DNA of 37,653 nt from Candidatus Taylorbacteria bacterium RIFCSPHIGHO2_02_FULL_43_32b (GTDB lineage Bacteria > Patescibacteriota > Minisyncoccia > Phycocordibacterales > 2-02-FULL-43-11), in assembly GCA_001820955.1 (NCBI GenBank), contig MHRK01000012.1, forward strand, positions 1-37,653, read 5' to 3'. The notes under the pieces are model-generated. The model was not told where the DNA came from and searched no databases. It saw only the letters and a list, made by a program, of their open reading frames with translations. A program made the position numbers and the translations under genes. Shown here in pieces: positions 2,160 to 31,854 of the stretch (position 1 is its first letter; each line of letters opens with the position of its first letter).

Positions 2160-2223
2160 AATTCCTAATGGGCACCATTGGGAACCCAGAAATTCGAACT
2201 GCCAATGGTGCCCATTAGGAATT
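2160..2223. repeat. 22-bp perfect inverted repeat (AATTCCTAATGGGCACCATTGG / CCAATGGTGCCCATTAGGAATT)
   Basis: Arms at 2160-2181 and 2202-2223; a further copy of the arm lies near 33594-33619. Confidence 0.9.
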
Positions 2224-2307
2224 CAACTAACAAAACGCCGGATTGGATATTCCATAGACTAGACGGCGAGGGAATATGCGAATCGGCAACCTGCCCGCCT
2301 AAACTTT

Positions 2308-2342
2308 TGACATATGGAGAATCGGACTCCCGTCTCCGCAAC
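2308..2342 (-). other. 3' tRNA half A' (anticodon 3' stem TGCGG, T-arm, acceptor 3' strand), partly degenerate
   Basis: Minus TTGCGGAGACGGGAGTCCGATTCTCCATATGTCAA; pairs with 5' half A; TGCGG matches CCGCA of half A. Confidence 0.6.
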
Positions 2343-2365
2343 TCGCCCCGTTAGACGCCGTGATG

Positions 2366-2400
2366 TAGACCTAGCGAGAATCGGACTCGCGTCTCCACAA
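2366..2400 (-). other. 3' tRNA half B' (anticodon 3' stem, variable loop, T-arm, acceptor 3' strand)
   Basis: Minus TTGTGGAGACGCGAGTCCGATTCTCGCTAGGTCTA; T-stem GCGAG/CTCGC; acceptor TAGGTCT pairs over 7 bp with AGGCCTA of half B, including G3:U70. Confidence 0.8.
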
Positions 2401-2417
2401 CTTGCCCGCCAAACTTT

Positions 2418-2488
2418 TGGACTCACCGGGAATCGAACCCGGACCTCGGCAATGCGAATGCCGCGTAATACCATTTTACTATGAGCCC
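2418..2488 (-). tRNA. tRNA-Ala (anticodon CGC)
   Basis: Minus GGGCTCATAGTAAAATGGTATTACGCGGCATTCGCATTGCCGAGGTCCGGGTTCGATTCCCGGTGAGTCCA; G3:U70; anticodon stem CGGCA/TGCCG; loop TTCGCAT. Confidence 0.93.
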
Positions 2489-2515
2489 ATATTGTCAAAA
2501 GTTTAGGCGGGTGAA

Positions 2516-2549
2516 CGAATGTGGCGTCGTACCACTAGACCATAGGCCT
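2516..2549 (-). other. 5' tRNA half B (acceptor 5' strand, D-arm, anticodon 5' stem, loop to position 35)
   Basis: Minus AGGCCTATGGTCTAGTGGTACGACGCCACATTCG; CCACA pairs with TGTGG of B'. Confidence 0.8.
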
Positions 2550-2565
2550 CCTATGCGTCTAACTG

Positions 2566-2639
2566 GGTAAAAATGCGGCGCTGTGCCCCGTATGCAGCTT
2601 TGCTGTCATGCTGGGGTATTACCAATATACTATAAGCCC
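2566..2639 (-). other. 5' tRNA half A with an internal hairpin insertion between D-arm and anticodon stem
   Basis: Minus GGGCTTATAGTATATTGGTAATAC[CCCAGCATGACAGCAAAGCTGCATACGGGGCACAG]CGCCGCATTTTTACC; D-stem GTAT/ATAC intact. Confidence 0.6.
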
Positions 2640-2801
2640 ATTATGCAAATTTGTGGCGGGTGCACGATTGAGATCCGACACAGTGAATACTTTACATTAA
2701 ACAGTCTTATCGAGCAACGAACAAATTTCATGCCAATTGACACAAAGTTGAGAATACTATTCAATATGCGCAGTAGTTCAAACTTCAAACCCATAAAATA
2801 A

Positions 2802-7245: not shown

Positions 7246-7318
7246 TGGACCCTACCGGGATCGAACCGGTCACCTCCACATTGCAAATGTGGCGCTCTAC
7301 CAGATGAGCTAAGGGCCC
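7246..7318 (-). tRNA. tRNA-Ala (anticodon TGC)
   Basis: Minus GGGCCCTTAGCTCATCTGGTAGAGCGCCACATTTGCAATGTGGAGGTGACCGGTTCGATCCCGGTAGGGTCCA; G3:U70; anticodon loop TTTGCAA. Confidence 0.96.
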
Positions 7319-7342
7319 GTATTTAAAGTTTTTGGTGGTGAA

Positions 7343-7422
7343 CAAATGTGGCGCTCCCCGCCCGTACCGAATCGTACCATATTCGGTACGGTTCGGGCGG
7401 GTACCAACTGAGCTAACGGCCC
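7343..7422 (-). other. 5' half of a tRNA-Ala(TGC)-like gene with a 45-nt hairpin inserted in the D-loop
   Basis: Minus GGGCCGTTAGCTCAGTTGGTA + 45 nt (7357-7401) + GAGCGCCACATTTG, then TTCACC. Removing the insert restores D-stem GCTC/GAGC. GAGCGCCACATTTG is identical to the intact neighbour. Confidence 0.8.
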
Positions 7423-22488: not shown

Positions 22489-25400
22489 TTAAAAGTTGAG
22501 GAAAGAGGCGCTTAGTTGTTGCTTGATAGACGAAGTGACCTGTTGCCAAACCGAAGTCAGGAGATGAATTTTTGTGGGATTAAAGGCTTCTGTTCCCCCT
22601 CCCGAACTGCCACCTGTCGCCTGGTGATAAACCTTGACTTGAATGGCATCGACACTGATAGTATTTGATGACACGTTGGCAATAATACGCAGTCTGAAGG
22701 TTGTGCCAAAATGAGTAGAATCCCACGCCCTACCCCACAAATCGGCCGGTCCGCCTAAGGTATAGACCACATCAGTCGTACTCAGTGTTGAAGTAACTTT
22801 GTCCGGTGTCGTTGTTGATGACCCGCTGTCTGAAGAAAGCGCGGCACCTATAGTACCGGCGGCACTTGAAGCCTTAGCCTCGATTTTCACCTCGATGCCA
22901 ATGATGGTATTTCCCGCCGGAATAGAGAAGCCGAATGTGGAATAATCCTGCCGACCATACAATGTGGTTTCTGTTGCATAAATGTTGTCAGAAGCCAAAG
23001 CATCTGACGCGTTTGTCCATTCACTAAACGTTGCACCAAGAGCTGTCGGAGCAATGAATCCTCCTTCGCTGCCGATCTCCTCCCCGGAATCCAAATCACC
23101 ATCGTTGTTCCCCACTTGACCGGCACTTTGGGCTTCCTGTCCGCCGATTGTCTGCGCCGGAGTACCGCCACCTGTTGAAACTACGGTCAATTTGCGGTGG
23201 TTAGTCTGCGGAGCGTTGCCGGTTACCCGGAGAGGTAAAGTGCTCACAGCGCCGGTTGCCGTAATGCCGTCAGAACGCAAAGCTAAGTTAATTTCATTGG
23301 CGTTGCCCAAGTTGTTGACCGTGGCCTTCATTATGTAGTTGCGGGTAGTTGTGGCTGTAAATGACGAACTGAAAGTTATAGTGCCCGTTCGGCTGGTAAT
23401 CGATACAACGCCAGTACCTCCGACTTCGGAATCTCCTGCGTCTACCACCCCGTCGCCGTCGTAGTCTATATATAGAGTGGGTGACGTGATATCTCCCTCT
23501 TCGGTCACTCGGACGTCCGTGATACTAATAGCTAGACTGGAAATAATGGCGTGCTCGCCCTGGGGGTTTAGTTTGAAAGTGAAAAGCTTGGCGGCGTTAA
23601 CGGTGGTTCCCGTCGTATCAAGCATGTTTGTCGCCTTGCCACCATCAGCTGGAGTTACGACAAGCAGACCTTTTATAGTTACAGTTTTGGTGTCAGAGGC
23701 ATCACTTGTCTGGTCAGTAACACCGTCCTTGAATATGTTAAGAGCTCCCTCGAAAGCGGCTGTGCCACTTGCAAAACTTCCAAGCTTAATTCCCGCGATA
23801 GTGAGGACATTGCTTCCGCCAAAGTTTTCCGTAACCGGAATATAGAGAACGCTTCCGTCTCCTTCCAAACTCAAATTGGAGCCCACTTTGCCCGAAGCAC
23901 TACCGCCAAAGATGGCTGAGAGATAGTTGGAGTCGAAGCGCATGTTGACGCTCGAAGTGGCGATAGCGATACGCAGTCCGTTGGCTGTGGTGATGGAAGG
24001 CGTGGCGGCGTCTGTTACGGTCAAAGTGGTGGAGGCTGAAGACTGGCCATATTCAAATATTTGGTTCGAGACTGTAAGCAGGGACAAATTACCGGAAACC
24101 GGGAATGTCCAGCAAGTGTTTCCCGTGCCGTCGTAGTTGGAGCTGTCGGAGGCGTCGATGGCCGAGTAATCGCCACAGGCGTTCGAATCTTTAACATTTG
24201 TATTGAGGACAGAGCGGGTGCCACTGACGTTGAGGCCAAACTGCGTTCCGCTTATGTAAGAACGGAGAGTGACGCGAGTTTCAATAGCGCCGCCGTTTAG
24301 AACGAGGTTGCCAATCGATGTCGTGGCGGCGGCGCCTGCCGCAAACTGAATTTTCGTATTCGGCTGTGTCGCGGTAAATGTTCCAGCAACGGTTATCGGC
24401 TCGCGGAAAATAACTGAGGGAGATGTCTGTGCGTCGATTCCGCTAGTATTCAGAATAACAAGATTGTTGAACGCCGACGAACCTGTCGAAGAACTAAACC
24501 ACGTCTGAAGTGAGCTTCCGTTCAAATATACCGTGCCACTTCCCGACACCATTTCACCGCTACTTGAAGCGAAACCCGATATTGAAAAGAGAGAAGGTAA
24601 CTGAATCTGCCCTCGGCTAACTACAAAATTGGTTGTTGAAGCATTATTGCTGTAAATCACACTCGGCACCTCCGTAATTGTGGAGGTCGCGTACCCGACT
24701 AAGAAGAAATCTTCATTCGTTGAACTTATTTTTCCTTCAATCTGGTTATTTGCATCCGTCTCGACAATTGCCCACGCATGTTCATAAGACTTTCTATAAA
24801 TATCCTCCGAGCTACCCATTGTCCTAAAGGCATAATTGTTTCCGCCTCCTGCTACAGCAGAGTACGTTTCTATAAAAGCGCCTGTCATGGTATCCGTACC
24901 GATATAACTCGAAAGATCAATGGTTGCGTATGCACCGGTCGAACCAAGAGATATATCATCGGCATTGGTTTTGAAAACTGCTCCGGCTGTGATGTAACCG
25001 ACCAGGTAGAAATCGTTACCGGCATCGGTAATATAACCCTCCAATATTTCACTTGCATCCACTCCGACAACCGCCCAAGCATGGCCTAAATTGCGTCTCA
25101 CACGATTATCTGTTGAACCATTTTTTCGCAAACCAAAATCACCGGTGCCACCTACATCGTGATATTCGATAATGGCGCCAATAGCAGTATCGGAACCTGT
25201 ATCCGTACTGATATCAATATCCGTCCAAGCCCCCGTACCGGCCAATGATTTGTCGACGGCATTTGTAAAAAAAGTAGCGCCGGCTGTGGTATAACCAACG
25301 AGCCAAATTGCCACGCCACTATTTGCAATGTCAGCCTCGAAAATCCTGTTGACATCAACACCTATCATGGCCCACAGGTGCTGACCACCATACCCGTATC

Positions 25401-28400
25401 TATACCTGGCGTCAGTTGAACCGTTTTTTCTAACGCCGAATGCGTCATTACTTGCCGTGGAAATATGCAAAATCACCCCGGTTGCTCCTTCGGGGATGTA
25501 TGAAGAAACATCCACATCAGTCCAAGCAGCATACGATGTCGGAGAAACATCAACAGGATCAATAAAATTAAAGACTGCTTCTGAACTTGTTGTCGTCGCC
25601 GAATCATGATGAATATTGCCGAGAGCGGAGGTGCCGGTTAGGTTGCCGGAAATATATTGAGTACCGGGTTCGCTAACCGAAAAAGTGGTTGTTCCCCCGT
25701 TATTCGTGAACGTTCCGCTATTGGCAAAATTACCGTAAATGCCGAGGTTATAAGGAGACGATGTCAAAGTATTCCCCGAGTTTATTGTAAGATCATGGAT
25801 CTCGACAGTAGTTGACGCAACATTGCCCGGCATGGACTTCCCTCCGCCGCCGGTCAAAATCAAATTGCCGAGATTGGATGGCCCTCTGAATACGCCGTCA
25901 ATCTGTTGCGATGAGGCGCTATCCATATAAGTCGTCCCGCTCCTCCAGTCGAATGTGCCGCCGTAGTTTGTGAGATTGCCGGAAATAGTCAGACTGTCTG
26001 TCGGCAGGTTAACGACGGGAGAGTGTTTGTAGAGTGTAATATAAGGAGAATTATTGTGCGGAATTGCCAAATATGTGCCGTCCGAAGAAAATACCGGCCC
26101 GTAATATCCGTCTCCTGTAGGCAAATTGGCTGGATTAGTTAACCGGCCAAAAGAATCCCCTGAGCGTCGGTATAGCGAGACATAGGGAGTACTTGCGTGT
26201 GCCCAAATAAAATATTTATCGTCCGGAGAAAAGGCGACACCGTTTGTGATACTTGTCGATGGTGATGATGAAAAAGGACTCGCAAGCTTAGAGAATGTAT
26301 CCCCCGAACGCTTGTACATAGTCACATAAGGAGAGGAGTTGTGGCCCACAGCAAGATATAGGCCGCTGTTGGAGAAAGTTGCCGCGCGGCCATTCGACGA
26401 CGGCAAATCACTAGGGTTATCCAGTTTCATAAAAGTATCGCCTGCACGCTTATACACGGTAACGTAAGGCGTCGTGTCATGGGAAACAGCAAGATAAGAA
26501 TTATCTGAAGAAAATGACACTCCATATCCGGCTCCGGTTGGCATTGTATCCGGATTGGCTAATTTCCTAAACGTATCGCCTGCACGCTTATATATGGTTA
26601 CAAAAGGGGTTGTGGAATGGCCTACGACCAGATATTCGCCACTTGGCGAAAACGCGATTCCCCTGCCGGTATCGGGAGGAAGTAAAGAAGGATTGGCAAG
26701 CTTAGTAAATGTGTCGCCAGAGCGTTTATATATGGTTACAAACGGCGAGGTAAAATGAGCTACCGACAAATATGTACCGTCGGACGAAAACGCCACTGCC
26801 CTGGCCGCGCCGGTTGGAAGCGTTCCGGGATTTGATAACTTGACGAAAGCATCTCCTGAGCGCTTGTAAATAGTAACATATGGCGATGCGTTAACTGCAA
26901 CCGCCAAATATACTCCATCAGGCGAAAACGCCGCACCATTCGTTAGCGCCACCGGTAAGTCAGGATTCGGCAATTTAATAAACGTATCCCCCGCCTCAAT
27001 CGTGAAATTCGTCGTCGAGGCATTTGAAGCGAATGTAGTCGTCCCCGTGCCGGTGAAGATAACGTTGTTGAAAGCGTTCGTCGAGCCGTACATCAAACCG
27101 GAAAGAGTTTGCGTCGGCTGGGCGGCAGTTGAGGTAGCGTCAAAATAAACCGTGCCGGAATTGTGAGTGAAAAAACCGCTTGAAGAATTGGTGTAATCCC
27201 CTGCTATGGTGAGCATCGTGGAAGGCGCGACGATGGTGGTCGTGGCGTAACCAGCCGTGGTCGTCGCACGGCCTATTATAAAATCAGTGGTCGAAGCCGT
27301 TGATGCGATTGTTGTCGTTCCGGGGAGTGATCCGACTTCCCAGACTTCGGCGTCGCCGGCAGTATTTCCCAACCCCGCGTAGAGTTTGTTGTTGTGGGAG
27401 GTGAGAGAATAAACCATTTCATACGTAGCGGCCCCCCATTCAGTATCGTCGGCTATCTTCGTCCAAACAGATCCGTTGTACTCCCAGACTTCGGCTTCGC
27501 CGGCAGAAATTCCCAACCCCGCGTAGAGTTTGTTGTTGTGGGAGGCGAAAGAGCGTACATACTCATAGGTCGCATCTGCCCAAGAAGAATTAACAGCGTC
27601 GCCACCAACCAGTGTCCACGTTGACCCGTTGTATTCCCAGACTTCAGCTGCGCCGGCAGTCAATCCCAATCCCGCGTAGAGTTTGTTGTTGTGGGAGGTG
27701 AGAGAATTTACAACCTCATACGTAGCGGCCCCCCATTCAGTATCGTCGGCTATCTTTGTCCATGAGGATCCATTATATTCCCAAACTTCGGCTTCGCCGG
27801 CAGTAGTTCCCAACCCCGCGTAGAGTTTGTTGTTGTGGGAGGTGAGAGAATAAACCATTTCATACGTAGCGGCCCCCCATTCAGTATCGTCGGCTATCTT
27901 TGTCCATGAAGATCCATTGTATTCCCAGACTTCGGCTTCACCGGCGCTCCACCCCAGCCCCGCGTAGAGTTTGTTGTTGTGGGAAACAAGAGACCAGGCA
28001 TACTCATAGGTCGCATCTGCCCAAGAAGAATTAACAGCGTCGCCACCGACCAGTGTCCACGTTGACCCGTTGTATTCCCAGACTTCGGCTTCGCCAGAAT
28101 GGATTCCCAACCCCGCGTAGAGTTTGTTGTTGTGGGAGGTGAGAGAAATGACCATATCATACGTAGCGGCCCCCCATTCAGTATCGTCGGCTATCTTCGT
28201 CCAAACAGATCCGTTGTACTCCCAGACTTCGGCTTCACCGGCGGTTGTTCCCAATCCCGCGTAGAGTTTGTTGTTGTGGGAGGCGAAAGAGCGCGCATAC
28301 TCATAATCCGTACCATTCCACCCGGCACCATCCCCTCCCACCTTCCACGCCTGCACACCTGTTTTGAATTCAACATTGTTGAGCGCGGACGAGCCGGTCA

Positions 28401-31400
28401 AAATGCCGGAGAGAGTCGTCGTCGCGCCGGTCATAAAGAGCGTGCCGTTATTGTGGTTGAAAGACGCGCCATTTGCAAAGTTGCCGTTTACGGTGAGAAC
28501 GGACGGTGCGACGACCGTTCCGCTACCGGCGAGAATTTGAAAATTGCCGGTAGTAGAAGCGTTGGCCGAAAAAGTTTTCATGCCCGCGCCGAAAAATTCC
28601 AAGTCATTGAAAGAGCCGCCATTTGTCAGCGTGCCCGAGAGTGTTTGAGCCGAAGTGCCGGTAAATGTCGTCGTGCCAAAACCGGCTTTCAAAACGCCGG
28701 AGTTTGAATAGTTGCCGGAAATAGAAAGCGAACTTGGCAGAGCGACAGTGGTTGACGCATCAACAATCGTAAAATTGGTGGTGGAGGCGTTTCCGAGAAT
28801 CGGGAAAAAAGAAGTGATGTTCATACTGGTTGACGTCGGCATCGCGCCGGATGGCAACATGCCGATTTCCCAGACAGCCCCTTTATTGATCGCCGTATAT
28901 CCTAGACCGGCATACAATCTCCCATTATTGGAAGTAAGAGCGTAAATTAAATCAAACACGCTCGGATCCCATGATGAATTTATAAAATCGCCGGCTACTT
29001 TCATCCACAACGACCCGTCATACATCCACAAATCACCATCACCTGCACTACTTCCAAGGCCTGCGTAAAGTTTGCCTCCATGAGAAGAAAGAGAATACAC
29101 AGCCTCGTATGAGGCCACTCCCCATTGCGGTGAATCAGCAATTTTTGTCCATGACGCTCCGTTATATTCCCAGACTTCGGCTTCACCGGCCGTAGTACCC
29201 AACCCCGCGTAGAGTTTGTTATTATGAGCTTCAAGAGCAAGGACAGACTCGTAAGTGGCATCAGCCCACCCTGTCCCATCTCCGCCTACTTTCGTCCACG
29301 ATGCGCCGTTATATTCCCAAACTTCGGCTTCGCCTGCCGACAATCCCAAACCGGCGTAAAGTTTTCCACCGAAAGAAGCCAAGCTGTACACACGTTCATA
29401 ATTGGTGCCATCCCATCCCATATTATCACCCCCAATCTTCGTCCACGTAGACCCGCTATACTCCCAGACTTCACCATCGCCCGCGGTAGAACCAATGCCG
29501 GCATACAGCTTGCCGTCATGCGAAACCATTGATTCCACTATTTCATAATCTGTATTCCATGATGAATTTGTGCCGTCACCTCCTATTTGTGTCCAAGTAC
29601 TACCATTGTATTCCCAAACTTCGGCTTCGCCGGCAGTTGTACCGGAAACACCTGCGTATAATTTACCGTTATGCGACGTGAGCGAAAAAATATACTCATA
29701 TGTAGCCACGCCCCACTCGGTACTATCGCCAATTTTCGTCCAGGTGGAACCGTTGTATTCCCAAACTTCAGCTTCGCCTGCATCATAGCCCATGCCGATG
29801 TACAATTTATTTTGATGAGCGGTCATACTGTATATCGCTTCTGCTGTTGTCCACGACGAATTCACTCCCTCCCCTCCCACCTTCGAGGCCTTGAACCCCG
29901 ATTGAAATCTGACACTGCCGAGGCCGTTGCCATTTGTGAGAGTGCCAGTTATAGCCGTCGTCGTAACGCCGGCGAAAGTTATAGTCGTGCCGTTATTGGT
30001 AAACGTGCCGGCATTGTGAAAACTTCCACCGATATCAAGATACGACGACGGCGCCGTTACCGTGCCGGCTGAAATTGTAAAGTTGCCCGTTGTCGTCGCC
30101 GCCGAACGAGTGAAAGACCATGCGCTACCCACCCCGCTAAAAGTTGTCGAGGCAAAACTGCTCCCAGAAAAAAGGTCGATAGTCTTCCCTGTCGTCGTCG
30201 CGTTGAATAGTACGCCATAACCCGGGGATGTCAGAAATCCATATTGATGAGTTCTCAGATCCCCCGCAATTGTCATTTCCCCGCCCAAATCCAACCTTGC
30301 CCCACTTGCGATATAAAGATCGCCGTCATTTGCTCCTCCCGAGGGTCCGTTCCCTGCTATTGTGATCGTGCCTCCCGGCCTGTAATACGTCGAAGTCGCG
30401 ATAAGCAATTTGTTTCCTGAAAAAACAAAAAGATTGTTCGAATTGGATGTAAATCTGATGCTTCCATTCGTTGTATTGTCGCCATCGTAAAGACCGAGGT
30501 CGGCGTTGGTTGTCGAAGTCGACGCAGGGCCCCCCTCGTGCTTAACGATAATAGTGTCTTTGTAAAGATCAAAATTATAAATACTCTTTGTCGTTGACGA
30601 TTTCGTATGAGAAAAAGCGCGAAAACCGGAATCGCCGTCTATCCACGCGGAAAGGCTGATCCCTTGAGGTAAGGATGTAATCGACGTAATCCGCCATTCT
30701 CCTGTATTGGCGTAAGTTGTGGTCGAGAATATACCCGGTGTCCCCGTGGCAACGCGCAGTTTGAGAATGCGACCGCCAGTCGTGTCCTGCGTAACGCCCT
30801 CATCGTTAAAGATAGTGCCGGAAACGACAGGCGCGGCTTCGGTGGAAAACTTATTGCAGGTCGAGGAGTCGGTGAACGTGGCCGAGCCATCAGGGTCCTT
30901 GGCCGACGCCTTCCACCAATAGTCGGTGCCGGCAGACAATGGCGTTTGGGTAACGTATGTGCCTTGGGTTCCCGAAGTGAAACAACTTGTCGGATTATTC
31001 GTACATGACGTATTCTGGCCGCTCCAGCCTGTCGAAGATACGGCCTGGTCGTTGGTCTGCACGACAGCCGAACAACCTGAGTTGGAATAAATGGTCACCT
31101 TATAACCGAGATTATCACTATTGGAATCAGTAGAAGTCATCGTAAAAGTCGGCGTCGTGCTCAGGTCGATAGCGTTGTTTGACGGAGAATCCTGCGTCGG
31201 AGTACTAGGCGCGGCGTTCGTTGTAACCTGCGGACACACGTTGTAGTTAGTTAGGTTTGTGCCGTTGTTACTAACGCGAAGTATGTAAGCGGTTCCTGGC
31301 GTTGCGGCTGCTGTAACAACTAAGTTCCATTCGTATTCAGTTTCTTTTTTAGGACCAATGAATATCTCGCTACCCGGATTGCTAGACTCCAGTAGTTCAC

Positions 31401-31854
31401 CGGCTATAAACGTAACCCCTCCTTTACTTGCCAGCTGTTCGGTTGTAGGAGCGCCATCGCTGAAATTTGTCGAACTCGAAAGAGCTATTGCGTTTGAAAT
31501 CGAAGTTGTTATCGTTGTCCAACCGCTCGCGTCAGTACAGGCTCCACCAGCCGCAGCTTTGTATTCAATTCTTGGTGTGACGCTACCAGTAACGTTTCCC
31601 GACTCGTCGAAATGGATGCGGAGACGAAAATTTGTACTTGGACCCATCGACCCAACGTTGACGTCTTCAGCCGCCAGCCAATCAGTGGCCGTTTCTCCGC
31701 CGGTATCTCCCTTAAATCTGAAGTGAACCTGGTTGGTGGTGAAAGTACCGCCGGCTTCCGTTACTGAAGGCACAAAAAAAATCATCGGGCCCAAAAGCAC
31801 CCCGAGTAGGTTGAAGGCAAATACCCTAACGAATGTTTTTTTAAATTTCAACAT
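22489..31854 (-). CDS. Giant secreted surface protein with three seven-unit repeat arrays (predicted beta-propellers)
   Basis: 3121 aa; signal peptide; seven LYxGxG...AEVWEYNGSxWTKI units, twice; seven YVTIYKRSGDTFxKLxNP units; no sorting signal recognised at the C-terminus. Confidence 0.88.
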   Translation of the reverse strand: MLKFKKTFVRVFAFNLLGVLLGPMIFFVPSVTEAGGTFTTNQVHFRFKGDTGGETATDWLAAEDVNVGSMGPSTNFRLRIHFDESGNVTGSVTPRIEYKAAAGGACTDASGWTTITTSISNAIALSSSTNFSDGAPTTEQLASKGGVTFIAGELLESSNPGSEIFIGPKKETEYEWNLVVTAAATPGTAYILRVSNNGTNLTNYNVCPQVTTNAAPSTPTQDSPSNNAIDLSTTPTFTMTSTDSNSDNLGYKVTIYSNSGCSAVVQTNDQAVSSTGWSGQNTSCTNNPTSCFTSGTQGTYVTQTPLSAGTDYWWKASAKDPDGSATFTDSSTCNKFSTEAAPVVSGTIFNDEGVTQDTTGGRILKLRVATGTPGIFSTTTYANTGEWRITSITSLPQGISLSAWIDGDSGFRAFSHTKSSTTKSIYNFDLYKDTIIVKHEGGPASTSTTNADLGLYDGDNTTNGSIRFTSNSNNLFVFSGNKLLIATSTYYRPGGTITIAGNGPSGGANDGDLYIASGARLDLGGEMTIAGDLRTHQYGFLTSPGYGVLFNATTTGKTIDLFSGSSFASTTFSGVGSAWSFTRSAATTTGNFTISAGTVTAPSSYLDIGGSFHNAGTFTNNGTTITFAGVTTTAITGTLTNGNGLGSVRFQSGFKASKVGGEGVNSSWTTAEAIYSMTAHQNKLYIGMGYDAGEAEVWEYNGSTWTKIGDSTEWGVATYEYIFSLTSHNGKLYAGVSGTTAGEAEVWEYNGSTWTQIGGDGTNSSWNTDYEIVESMVSHDGKLYAGIGSTAGDGEVWEYSGSTWTKIGGDNMGWDGTNYERVYSLASFGGKLYAGLGLSAGEAEVWEYNGASWTKVGGDGTGWADATYESVLALEAHNNKLYAGLGTTAGEAEVWEYNGASWTKIADSPQWGVASYEAVYSLSSHGGKLYAGLGSSAGDGDLWMYDGSLWMKVAGDFINSSWDPSVFDLIYALTSNNGRLYAGLGYTAINKGAVWEIGMLPSGAMPTSTSMNITSFFPILGNASTTNFTIVDASTTVALPSSLSISGNYSNSGVLKAGFGTTTFTGTSAQTLSGTLTNGGSFNDLEFFGAGMKTFSANASTTGNFQILAGSGTVVAPSVLTVNGNFANGASFNHNNGTLFMTGATTTLSGILTGSSALNNVEFKTGVQAWKVGGDGAGWNGTDYEYARSFASHNNKLYAGLGTTAGEAEVWEYNGSVWTKIADDTEWGAATYDMVISLTSHNNKLYAGLGIHSGEAEVWEYNGSTWTLVGGDAVNSSWADATYEYAWSLVSHNNKLYAGLGWSAGEAEVWEYNGSSWTKIADDTEWGAATYEMVYSLTSHNNKLYAGLGTTAGEAEVWEYNGSSWTKIADDTEWGAATYEVVNSLTSHNNKLYAGLGLTAGAAEVWEYNGSTWTLVGGDAVNSSWADATYEYVRSFASHNNKLYAGLGISAGEAEVWEYNGSVWTKIADDTEWGAATYEMVYSLTSHNNKLYAGLGNTAGDAEVWEVGSLPGTTTIASTASTTDFIIGRATTTAGYATTTIVAPSTMLTIAGDYTNSSSGFFTHNSGTVYFDATSTAAQPTQTLSGLMYGSTNAFNNVIFTGTGTTTFASNASTTNFTIEAGDTFIKLPNPDLPVALTNGAAFSPDGVYLAVAVNASPYVTIYKRSGDAFVKLSNPGTLPTGAARAVAFSSDGTYLSVAHFTSPFVTIYKRSGDTFTKLANPSLLPPDTGRGIAFSPSGEYLVVGHSTTPFVTIYKRAGDTFRKLANPDTMPTGAGYGVSFSSDNSYLAVSHDTTPYVTVYKRAGDTFMKLDNPSDLPSSNGRAATFSNSGLYLAVGHNSSPYVTMYKRSGDTFSKLASPFSSSPSTSITNGVAFSPDDKYFIWAHASTPYVSLYRRSGDSFGRLTNPANLPTGDGYYGPVFSSDGTYLAIPHNNSPYITLYKHSPVVNLPTDSLTISGNLTNYGGTFDWRSGTTYMDSASSQQIDGVFRGPSNLGNLILTGGGGKSMPGNVASTTVEIHDLTINSGNTLTSSPYNLGIYGNFANSGTFTNNGGTTTFSVSEPGTQYISGNLTGTSALGNIHHDSATTTSSEAVFNFIDPVDVSPTSYAAWTDVDVSSYIPEGATGVILHISTASNDAFGVRKNGSTDARYRYGYGGQHLWAMIGVDVNRIFEADIANSGVAIWLVGYTTAGATFFTNAVDKSLAGTGAWTDIDISTDTGSDTAIGAIIEYHDVGGTGDFGLRKNGSTDNRVRRNLGHAWAVVGVDASEILEGYITDAGNDFYLVGYITAGAVFKTNADDISLGSTGAYATIDLSSYIGTDTMTGAFIETYSAVAGGGNNYAFRTMGSSEDIYRKSYEHAWAIVETDANNQIEGKISSTNEDFFLVGYATSTITEVPSVIYSNNASTTNFVVSRGQIQLPSLFSISGFASSSGEMVSGSGTVYLNGSSLQTWFSSSTGSSAFNNLVILNTSGIDAQTSPSVIFREPITVAGTFTATQPNTKIQFAAGAAATTSIGNLVLNGGAIETRVTLRSYISGTQFGLNVSGTRSVLNTNVKDSNACGDYSAIDASDSSNYDGTGNTCWTFPVSGNLSLLTVSNQIFEYGQSSASTTLTVTDAATPSITTANGLRIAIATSSVNMRFDSNYLSAIFGGSASGKVGSNLSLEGDGSVLYIPVTENFGGSNVLTIAGIKLGSFASGTAAFEGALNIFKDGVTDQTSDASDTKTVTIKGLLVVTPADGGKATNMLDTTGTTVNAAKLFTFKLNPQGEHAIISSLAISITDVRVTEEGDITSPTLYIDYDGDGVVDAGDSEVGGTGVVSITSRTGTITFSSSFTATTTRNYIMKATVNNLGNANEINLALRSDGITATGAVSTLPLRVTGNAPQTNHRKLTVVSTGGGTPAQTIGGQEAQSAGQVGNNDGDLDSGEEIGSEGGFIAPTALGATFSEWTNASDALASDNIYATETTLYGRQDYSTFGFSIPAGNTIIGIEVKIEAKASSAAGTIGAALSSDSGSSTTTPDKVTSTLSTTDVVYTLGGPADLWGRAWDSTHFGTTFRLRIIANVSSNTISVDAIQVKVYHQATGGSSGGGTEAFNPTKIHLLTSVWQQVTSSIKQQLSASFLNF

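What the first reader, a model, noticed from the sequence alone, without database searches (positions are those of the whole stretch)
2366..2549. Possible split or interrupted tRNA-Ala whose anticodon-loop interruption contains a complete tRNA-Ala(CGC)
Seen on the minus strand. 5' half AGGCCTATGGTCTAGTGGTACGACGCCACATTCG is followed by TTCACCCGCCTAAACTTTTGACAATAT, then intact tRNA-Ala(CGC), then AAAAGTTTGGCGGGCAAGT, then 3' half TGTGGAGACGCGAGTCCGATTCTCGCTAGGTCTA. The halves form a canonical cloverleaf: 7-bp acceptor AGGCCTA/TAGGTCT with the Ala identity pair G3:U70, anticodon stem CCACA/TGTGG, 4-nt variable loop, T-stem GCGAG/CTCGC, A73. The break falls in the anticodon loop. The interruption ends are complementary (CCCGCCTAAACTTTTG with CAAAAGTTTGGCGGG), so they extend the anticodon stem. 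RNase P and 3'-processing of the inner tRNA would leave two half-RNAs held together by this stem, as in split tRNAs of Nanoarchaeum. Such an arrangement would be very unusual in a bacterium. That it is functional is inference; the anticodon of any joined product cannot be fixed because the splice points are unknown.
Basis: partly seen in the sequence, partly recalled or inferred. Interest (0 to 1): 0.93.

Follow-up and report, generated by a model that had tools for sequence, protein, structure and literature searches.

The report
tRNA genes nested inside disrupted tRNAs
In this tiny uncultured bacterium (Patescibacteria), and in dozens of its relatives, a small hairpin-bounded DNA cassette carrying a complete tRNA gene sits inside a loop of an older tRNA gene of the same kind, breaking the old gene and supplying its only working replacement, sometimes several layers deep like Russian dolls.

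Summary
On the minus strand an intact tRNA-Ala(CGC) (2489-2417), framed by a 15-bp complementary stem, lies in the anticodon loop of a second, nearly perfect tRNA-Ala. That unit sits inside a third and traces of a fourth, each layer outward more decayed. It is not a one-off. A scan of 85,000 genomes plus order-level searches gave 55 distinct tRNA-bearing hairpin cassettes (15 anticodons), almost all in Patescibacteria. All lie in remnants of a tRNA. In 49 of 55 the remnant best matches the same amino acid, 53 of 55 are co-oriented with it and none is opposed. Near-identical cassettes occur in different outer tRNAs, at different loops and in both end orientations, so the cassette is mobile. In 11 genomes the inner gene is the only intact tRNA-Ala(CGC) found. 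The own genome has at least six such loci. A functional split tRNA is unlikely: no single splice restores CGC here (or in 16 of 17 Ala loci), about half of the outer tRNAs are decayed, and no RtcB or tRNA splicing endonuclease was found. Best explanation: hairpin-bounded, apparently promoterless tRNA cassettes insert into cognate tRNA genes, kill them and replace them. I found no description of this. How they move and find the cognate gene is unknown.

The parts
2417..2489 (-). Layer 0: intact inner tRNA-Ala(CGC), the only intact tRNA-Ala(CGC) found in this genome
2496..2511 (-). Cassette stem, 5' arm CCCGCCTAAACTTTTG; preceded by TTCA (2515-2512)
2405..2419 (-). Cassette stem, 3' arm CAAAAGTTTGGCGGG (overlaps the last bases of the ARAGORN tRNA call); followed by CAAG (2404-2401)
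2516..2549 (-). Layer 1: 5' half of the disrupted outer tRNA-Ala (positions 1-35, ends TTCG)
   Evidence: same amino acid as inner (score 122)
2366..2399 (-). Layer 1: 3' half of the disrupted outer tRNA-Ala (positions 39-73)
2555..2567 (-). Second cassette stem, 5' arm CCCAGTTAGACGC (GTTAGA type), preceded by TTTA
2346..2358 (-). Second cassette stem, 3' arm GCGTCTAACGGGG, followed by CGAG
2568..2639 (-). Layer 2: decayed 5' half of an older tRNA-Ala (GGGCTTATAGTATATTGGTAATAC..GCCGCATT), with a further hairpin inserted after the D-arm
   Evidence: 85% repeat of the inner tRNA 5' end (D3)
2316..2341 (-). Layer 2: decayed 3' half TTGCGGAGACGGGAGTCCGATTCTCC
   Evidence: 85% repeat of the layer-1 3' half (D1)
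2644..2660 (-). Third cassette stem, 5' arm CCCGCCACAAATTTGCA, preceded by TGCA
   Evidence: (D2, I6)
2294..2312 (-). Third cassette stem, 3' arm TGTCAAAAGTTTAGGCGGG, followed by CAGG
7246..7318 (-). Second nested locus in the window: intact tRNA-Ala(TGC)
7334..7422 (-). 5' half of a disrupted tRNA-Ala(UGC)-like gene upstream of tRNA-Ala(TGC): GGGCCGTTAGCTCAGTTGGTA, D-loop palindrome 7401-7357, then GAGCGCCACATTTG-TTCA-CCACC; no 3' half recognised

Best explanation
The locus is a serial insertion site. A mobile cassette of about 100-130 bp, bounded by arms that can form a 12-17 bp hairpin and carrying only a complete tRNA gene, inserts into a loop (usually the anticodon loop) of a tRNA gene of the same kind. 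SHOWN: the architecture; its recurrence; the cognate and co-oriented relation of inner and outer genes; the constant foot (TTCA-YCC..GGR-CRRG); the sole-copy status of the inner Ala(CGC); decay of many outer genes; near-identical cassettes in different outer genes, loops and end orientations. INFERRED: the insertion destroys the resident tRNA, but the cassette tRNA is transcribed from the resident's promoter, is cut out by RNase P and the 3' processing enzymes, and takes over decoding, so the event is near neutral and then irreversible. A new cassette can insert into the tRNA of the old one, giving Russian dolls whose outer shells decay. The outer halves here are a young relic, not a split tRNA. 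The enzyme that moves the cassettes is unknown; a hairpin-recognising Y1 (REP-type) transposase acting in trans is one candidate.
For: 55 distinct tRNA-bearing elements of 15 anticodons (53 have the GTTAGA-type stem, plus the window and G012). Outer halves best match the same amino acid in 49 of 55. 53 of 55 co-oriented, 0 opposite. Element more alike than outer tRNA: Met L120/L142 element 99%, outer 71%. Arg L115/L124 element 94% but inserted in different loops. Ala L032/L132 element 92% but ends flipped and outers 50%. Only one intact Ala(CGC), the nested one, in 11 of the 12 genomes that the pattern hit. Perfect three-tRNA nest Val-in-Val-in-Val (L139) and double nest in Arg (L124). Many unrelated stems, arms always complementary, same foot. 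Covariation in the Ala set 0.484 against 0.153 shuffled. The own genome has six nested loci: Ala CGC, Ala TGC, Gly CCC, Arg CCT, Pro GGG, Lys CTT. Same-genus G001 has an uninterrupted tRNA-Ala(CGC) resembling the outer one. Tiny hairpins with the same stem core occur outside tRNA genes with 4-bp duplications or TTCA/CAAG flanks, so this end type is mobile.
Against: No transposase gene was linked to the cassettes. Why a cassette is found only in its cognate tRNA is not explained by chance targeting: no tRNA-bearing copy was found outside tRNA remnants, although plain elements with the same stem are common elsewhere. The constant TTCA/CRRG flanks are not target-site duplications in most cases. 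Higher inner identity partly reflects selection on a working gene. No expression data.
Confidence: 0.78

Rival explanations
1. Split or intron-containing tRNA: the inner tRNA is processed out and the outer halves, held by the stem, are ligated into a working second tRNA-Ala.
For: The window outer halves form a nearly perfect cloverleaf with G3:U70; arms stay complementary while changing sequence; about half of outer genes look intact.
Against: No single splice gives CGC in the window or in 16 of 17 Ala loci; no RtcB or tRNA_int_endo found; half of the outers are decayed or carry further insertions; the inner tRNA already supplies the same anticodon.
Confidence: 0.05
2. Selected processing scaffold: outer halves and stem are kept because they help to fold or mature the inner tRNA, or release useful tRNA fragments.
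For: Arms complementary in every locus despite very different sequences, and conserved foot TTCA/CRRG whose TT always faces purines.
Against: Outer halves decay freely, and intact Ala(CGC) genes without any scaffold occur in relatives. Complementary arms are also expected of fresh inverted-repeat insertions.
Confidence: 0.1
3. No mobile element: tandem tRNA duplications, deletions and slippage at inverted repeats produced nests by chance.
For: Met locus L120 does contain a tandem duplication of a 5' half; tRNA duplication is common in bacteria.
Against: Same foot sequences and stem types in 15 anticodons and many lineages, precise loop insertion, near-identical cassettes in unrelated outer genes.
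Confidence: 0.05
4. Assembly artefact or chimera.
For: The window genome and most of the other carriers are metagenome assemblies.
Against: Same architecture in more than 50 independent assemblies from different projects, in genomes up to 100% complete, with constant junctions.
Confidence: 0.01

Closest known systems
Split and trans-spliced tRNAs of Archaea (Nanoarchaeum equitans; PMC4033280)
   Same: Two tRNA halves broken near the anticodon and followed by complementary arms.
   Different: There the halves are separate genes joined by a splicing endonuclease at a BHB motif. Here a complete tRNA lies between them, no endonuclease was found, and no splice restores the anticodon.
REPINs and REPs moved by RAYT (Y1) transposases (PMC3116915)
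   Same: Short non-autonomous inverted-repeat elements forming hairpins; this genome has eight Y1_Tnp hits.
   Different: REPINs as described have no tRNA cargo and lie in extragenic space; no RAYT was linked to these cassettes, and the REP GTAG tag was not tested.
Dada DNA transposons of fish (PMC8869645)
   Same: Insert at defined positions of tRNA genes, around the anticodon and A box.
   Different: Eukaryotic transposons with their own protein, relying on multicopy targets; not described as carrying a replacement tRNA.
Prophages and integrative elements in tRNA genes (general knowledge)
   Same: They keep the target tRNA working by bringing a replacement part.
   Different: They use a tyrosine recombinase, restore one end of the same gene and are large. 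Here the whole gene is replaced by a nested copy in a tiny cassette.
Mobile-element disruption of archaeal tRNA-Thr in Caldiarchaeum (PMC3293823)
   Same: A mobile element proposed to break a tRNA gene and leave a fragment.
   Different: A 1.8-kb element with a recombinase gene, between a fragment and an intron-containing tRNA; not nested and not systematic.

Membership tests
Split / trans-spliced tRNA | Halves join to a tRNA with a usable anticodon | tested here: not met
   No single splice gives CGC in the window; 16 of 17 Ala loci negative
Split / trans-spliced tRNA | tRNA splicing endonuclease and ligase present | tested here: not met
   PF01974 and PF01139: no match in the 91% complete genome; controls ring
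Split / trans-spliced tRNA | Joined RNA observed | not testable with these tools
   needs tRNA-seq
Group I intron in tRNA | Intron core recognised by Rfam | tested here: not met
   Only tRNA found at gathering score in the window; no intron family at E up to 10 in 2100-2850
MITE / inverted-repeat mobile element | Terminal inverted repeats | tested here: met
   Complementary arms in all examined stems
MITE / inverted-repeat mobile element | Target-site duplication | tested here: inconclusive
   4-bp duplications in several plain elements; in tRNA cassettes only Gly L067 shows CAAG/CAAG, most have TTCA/CRRG
MITE / inverted-repeat mobile element | Near-identical copies at different sites | tested here: met
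   Met L120/L142, Arg L115/L124, Ala L032/L132
REPIN | Linked RAYT with matching REP sequence | tested here: inconclusive
   Y1_Tnp genes present but no obvious matching hairpin around the loci scanned for the foot motif
Tyrosine-recombinase integrative element | Integrase gene in the element | tested here: not met
   Cassettes hold only a tRNA between the arms

The most novel reading that the evidence does not exclude
The cassettes are tRNA-replacing selfish elements with genuine cognate targeting: some mechanism (hairpin-guided, tRNA-guided or sequence-directed) steers a cassette carrying tRNA X to the loop of gene X, so that it becomes indispensable on arrival and spreads between species of Patescibacteria, successively swapping their tRNA genes.
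Probability: 0.35. Interest if true: 0.95.

Novelty: categorically new. Interest (0 to 1): 0.87.

Why it matters
It would be a minimal mobile element whose whole content is one gene of translation and which survives by breaking and replacing that very gene. It gives a concrete route for horizontal replacement and sequence divergence of tRNA genes in reduced genomes, explains clusters of tRNA fragments in Patescibacteria, and warns that tRNA halves in such genomes are not evidence of split tRNAs. It also makes testable how tRNA genes become disrupted, a question so far studied mainly in Archaea.

Tried and rejected
Integron cassette idea (GTTAGA/TCTAAC resemble attC R boxes): the order of the boxes and lack of a second box do not fit; judged by eye only. 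Group I intron: no Rfam hit. IR of the window cassette as a multicopy family in this genome: only the copies at this locus were found. Synteny via the neighbouring ABC transporter: gave no empty site. Strict pattern CATTCGTTCA..CAAGTTG: only G012 true (it missed the window by one base in gap length). Solo hairpins in tRNA loops: none of the 20 solo hairpins read was in a tRNA. Linking a Y1 transposase to the foot motif: nothing found. L120 first read as a double nest turned out to be a tandem duplication. Literature searches for nested tRNAs, MITEs with tRNA, or tRNA introns in Patescibacteria gave nothing that describes this; only open-access papers are held.

Full report
WHAT IS THERE. An intact tRNA-Ala(CGC) (2489-2417, ARAGORN; 66.6 bits in Rfam) is framed by the arms CCCGCCTAAACTTTTG and CAAAAGTTTGGCGGG and lies between the halves of another tRNA-Ala. 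That outer gene has a perfect acceptor stem with G3:U70, perfect anticodon and T stems, and three of four D-stem pairs. The fold of the whole is better than dinucleotide shuffles (z -2.5). The repeats at the locus show that the nest continues outwards: a second stem (CCCAGTTAGACGC/GCGTCTAACGGGG), a second, decayed pair of tRNA-Ala halves, then a third stem (CCCGCCACAAATTTGCA/TGTCAAAAGTTTAGGCGGG). Decay grows outward: layer 0 intact, layer 1 nearly intact, layer 2 degenerate, and beyond it no tRNA is recognisable.

IT RECURS. A search of relatives led to G012 (another family of the order). It has the same arrangement with different stem letters: TTCATCCTCCAAAATTTTG..inner tRNA-Ala(CGC)..CAAAATTTAGGAGGACAAGT between tRNA-Ala halves. 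A scan of tRNA flanks then found the same in the own genome for Gly(CCC) (contig C22), and in G047 and G041. The stem core CCCCGTTAGA..TCTAACGGGG is shared with small elements of about 95-120 nt found in 121 of 397 genomes of the order. Most of those read carry no tRNA; several show 4-bp duplications such as TTCA, TGAA or TGGA. A scan of 84,980 genomes for this stem around a T-loop motif gave 59 stretches. With the window, G012 and the cases already in hand there are 55 distinct elements holding a tRNA: Ala CGC 17, Val TAC 7, Pro CGG 6, Val CAC 5, Gly CCC 4, Arg TCT 3, Pro TGG 3, Thr TGT 2, Met CAT 2, and one each of Arg TCG, Leu CAA, Val GAC, Glu CTC, Ser CGA and Thr CGT. Nearly all are from Patescibacteria; one contig is filed under Planctomycetota (L128).

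COGNATE AND CO-ORIENTED. Scored against a library of 216 intact tRNAs, the flanks of 49 of the 55 elements best match a tRNA of the same amino acid as the inner gene. The others are decayed or lack library members; by eye L140 is clearly Pro. Scored in both directions, 53 of 55 are co-oriented and none is opposite. The junctions are regular: for Ala..CATT-TTCA-CCCC..GGGG-CRRG-TTG.. replaces CGCA (positions 34-37), or ..CATTCG-TTCA.. replaces CA, as in the window. Met, Val, Pro, Thr and Gly are in the anticodon loop; Arg and Leu are in the D-loop or variable region. Cassettes for C34 anticodons are over-represented (36 of 55, against 60 of 162 non-nested tRNAs in the same loci). These are anticodons whose loss is often tolerated because a U34 tRNA can read the same codons (general knowledge).

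MOBILE. Pairs of loci with the same anticodon show cassettes more alike than their outer genes. Met L120/L142: element 99%, outer 71%. Arg L115/L124: element 94% but in different loops. Ala L032/L132: element 92%, outer 50%, and the TTCA/CRRG ends are swapped relative to the tRNA. The inner tRNA of G139 has the same 71 letters as that of the window but sits in a cassette with another stem and in an outer gene that differs by paired changes. Constraint on a working gene explains part of the higher inner identity, but not the different loops and end orientations. L139 is a perfect nest of three tRNA-Val genes and L124 a double nest of tRNA-Arg.

STEM. A covariance model built on 13 Ala loci found further nests in the order, including Val, Pro, Gly, Ala(GGC) and Ala(TGC) cases, with stems as different as CCCTGTTAGACAT, CCCCGTTACAAAT, TCCCGATAGCTC and TCCTCGAAAACAAAGG. 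Own arms align with a mean score of 11.5 against 5.1 for arms swapped between 17 loci. On the 13-sequence alignment 98.5% of cells pair and the covariation score is 0.484 (shuffled 0.153); the TT of TTCA always faces purines of CRRG. This shows that arms are matched locus by locus. It does not by itself show RNA function, since each insertion would bring matched arms.

OWN GENOME. G000 (1.01 Mb, 63 contigs, 91% complete) has at least six nested loci: Ala(CGC) and Ala(TGC) in the window, Gly(CCC) and Arg(CCT) on C22, Pro(GGG) inside a Pro(CGG)-like gene on C54, and Lys(CTT) in a D-loop on C13. It has one tRNA-Ala(CGC), the inner one. In 11 of the 12 genomes with a nested Ala(CGC) that the anticodon pattern hit, the nested gene is the only tRNA hit; G223 appears to have two nested ones. 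Same-genus G001 has an uninterrupted tRNA-Ala(CGC) of the outer type elsewhere. The inner gene thus replaces rather than adds.

NOT A SPLIT TRNA. Rejoining the window halves with a 7-nt loop by one splice can give CGU, CGA or CAA, never CGC. Only 1 of 17 Ala loci could give CGC. Joined outers read as tRNA in 28 of 55 (control 9 of 46), so about half look dead, some with extra palindromes in the D- or T-loop. RtcB and the splicing endonuclease were not found.

MECHANISM AND LIMITS. I infer that the cassette has no promoter of its own: only a few bases separate the arm from the tRNA, and it is always co-oriented. It would live only when inserted into a transcribed gene, and be harmless only in the gene it replaces. 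That explains co-orientation and, if insertion favours tRNA loops, the cognate rule by survival. But 0 clear non-cognate cases and 0 cassettes outside tRNA remnants among 55 is more than I can explain by survival alone, so true cognate targeting stays open. The moving enzyme is not identified: eight Y1 transposase hits exist in this genome but the loci scanned show no matching hairpin. The fixed TTCA/CRRG foot is unexplained; solo hairpins outside tRNA genes with the same TTCA..CAAG foot suggest it belongs to the element family.

NOVELTY. Searches of open-access literature found no description. Reviewed split tRNAs are archaeal (PMC4033280). Dada transposons target tRNA genes around the anticodon and are not described as replacing them (PMC8869645). 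REPINs are the nearest bacterial small elements (PMC3116915). I rate the gene organisation as categorically new; if the carrier proves to be a REPIN-type element it becomes a new variant of that kind.

Noticed in passing
L064-L093; 121 of 397 genomes: A family of 95-120 nt inverted-repeat elements with ends (T/C)CCCGTTAGARRT, several with 4-bp target duplications, up to 22 copies per genome in this order; apparently unnamed.
   Followed up: partly
L032 1600-1660; L036 minus about 1640-1600: The same palindrome CCTGCCTGCCGGCAGGCAGG is inserted in the T-loop (G047) and D-loop (G041) of already disrupted outer tRNAs.
   Followed up: no
L037 1250-1710 (G040): Array of tRNA-Ala 5' parts, two of them continuing into a repeated insert of about 100 nt (GTTGAAGATTGGGTTGGGACCCAATCGAAAGACC..GTGTACTGC) instead of a normal T-arm.
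   Followed up: no
window 2160-2223: Perfect 22-bp inverted repeat AATTCCTAATGGGCACCATTGG with 20-nt loop next to the nested locus.
   Followed up: no
L170-L174, L183, L184: Solo hairpins outside tRNA genes end in GGGACAAGTCCC or a close variant, i.e. the CAAG foot can form a second small hairpin.
   Followed up: no
L128 (Planctomycetota MAG Yes70-35): A nested tRNA-Val(TAC) on a 6.4-kb contig filed under Planctomycetota; a misbinned Patescibacteria contig is possible.
   Followed up: no
G000 whole genome: No tRNA-Ser, Ile, Phe, Trp or Asp found by Rfam or ARAGORN in the 91% complete assembly; missing sequence or unusually interrupted genes.
   Followed up: no
window 22489-31854 minus: Open reading frame of 3121 codons, not examined.
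   Followed up: no
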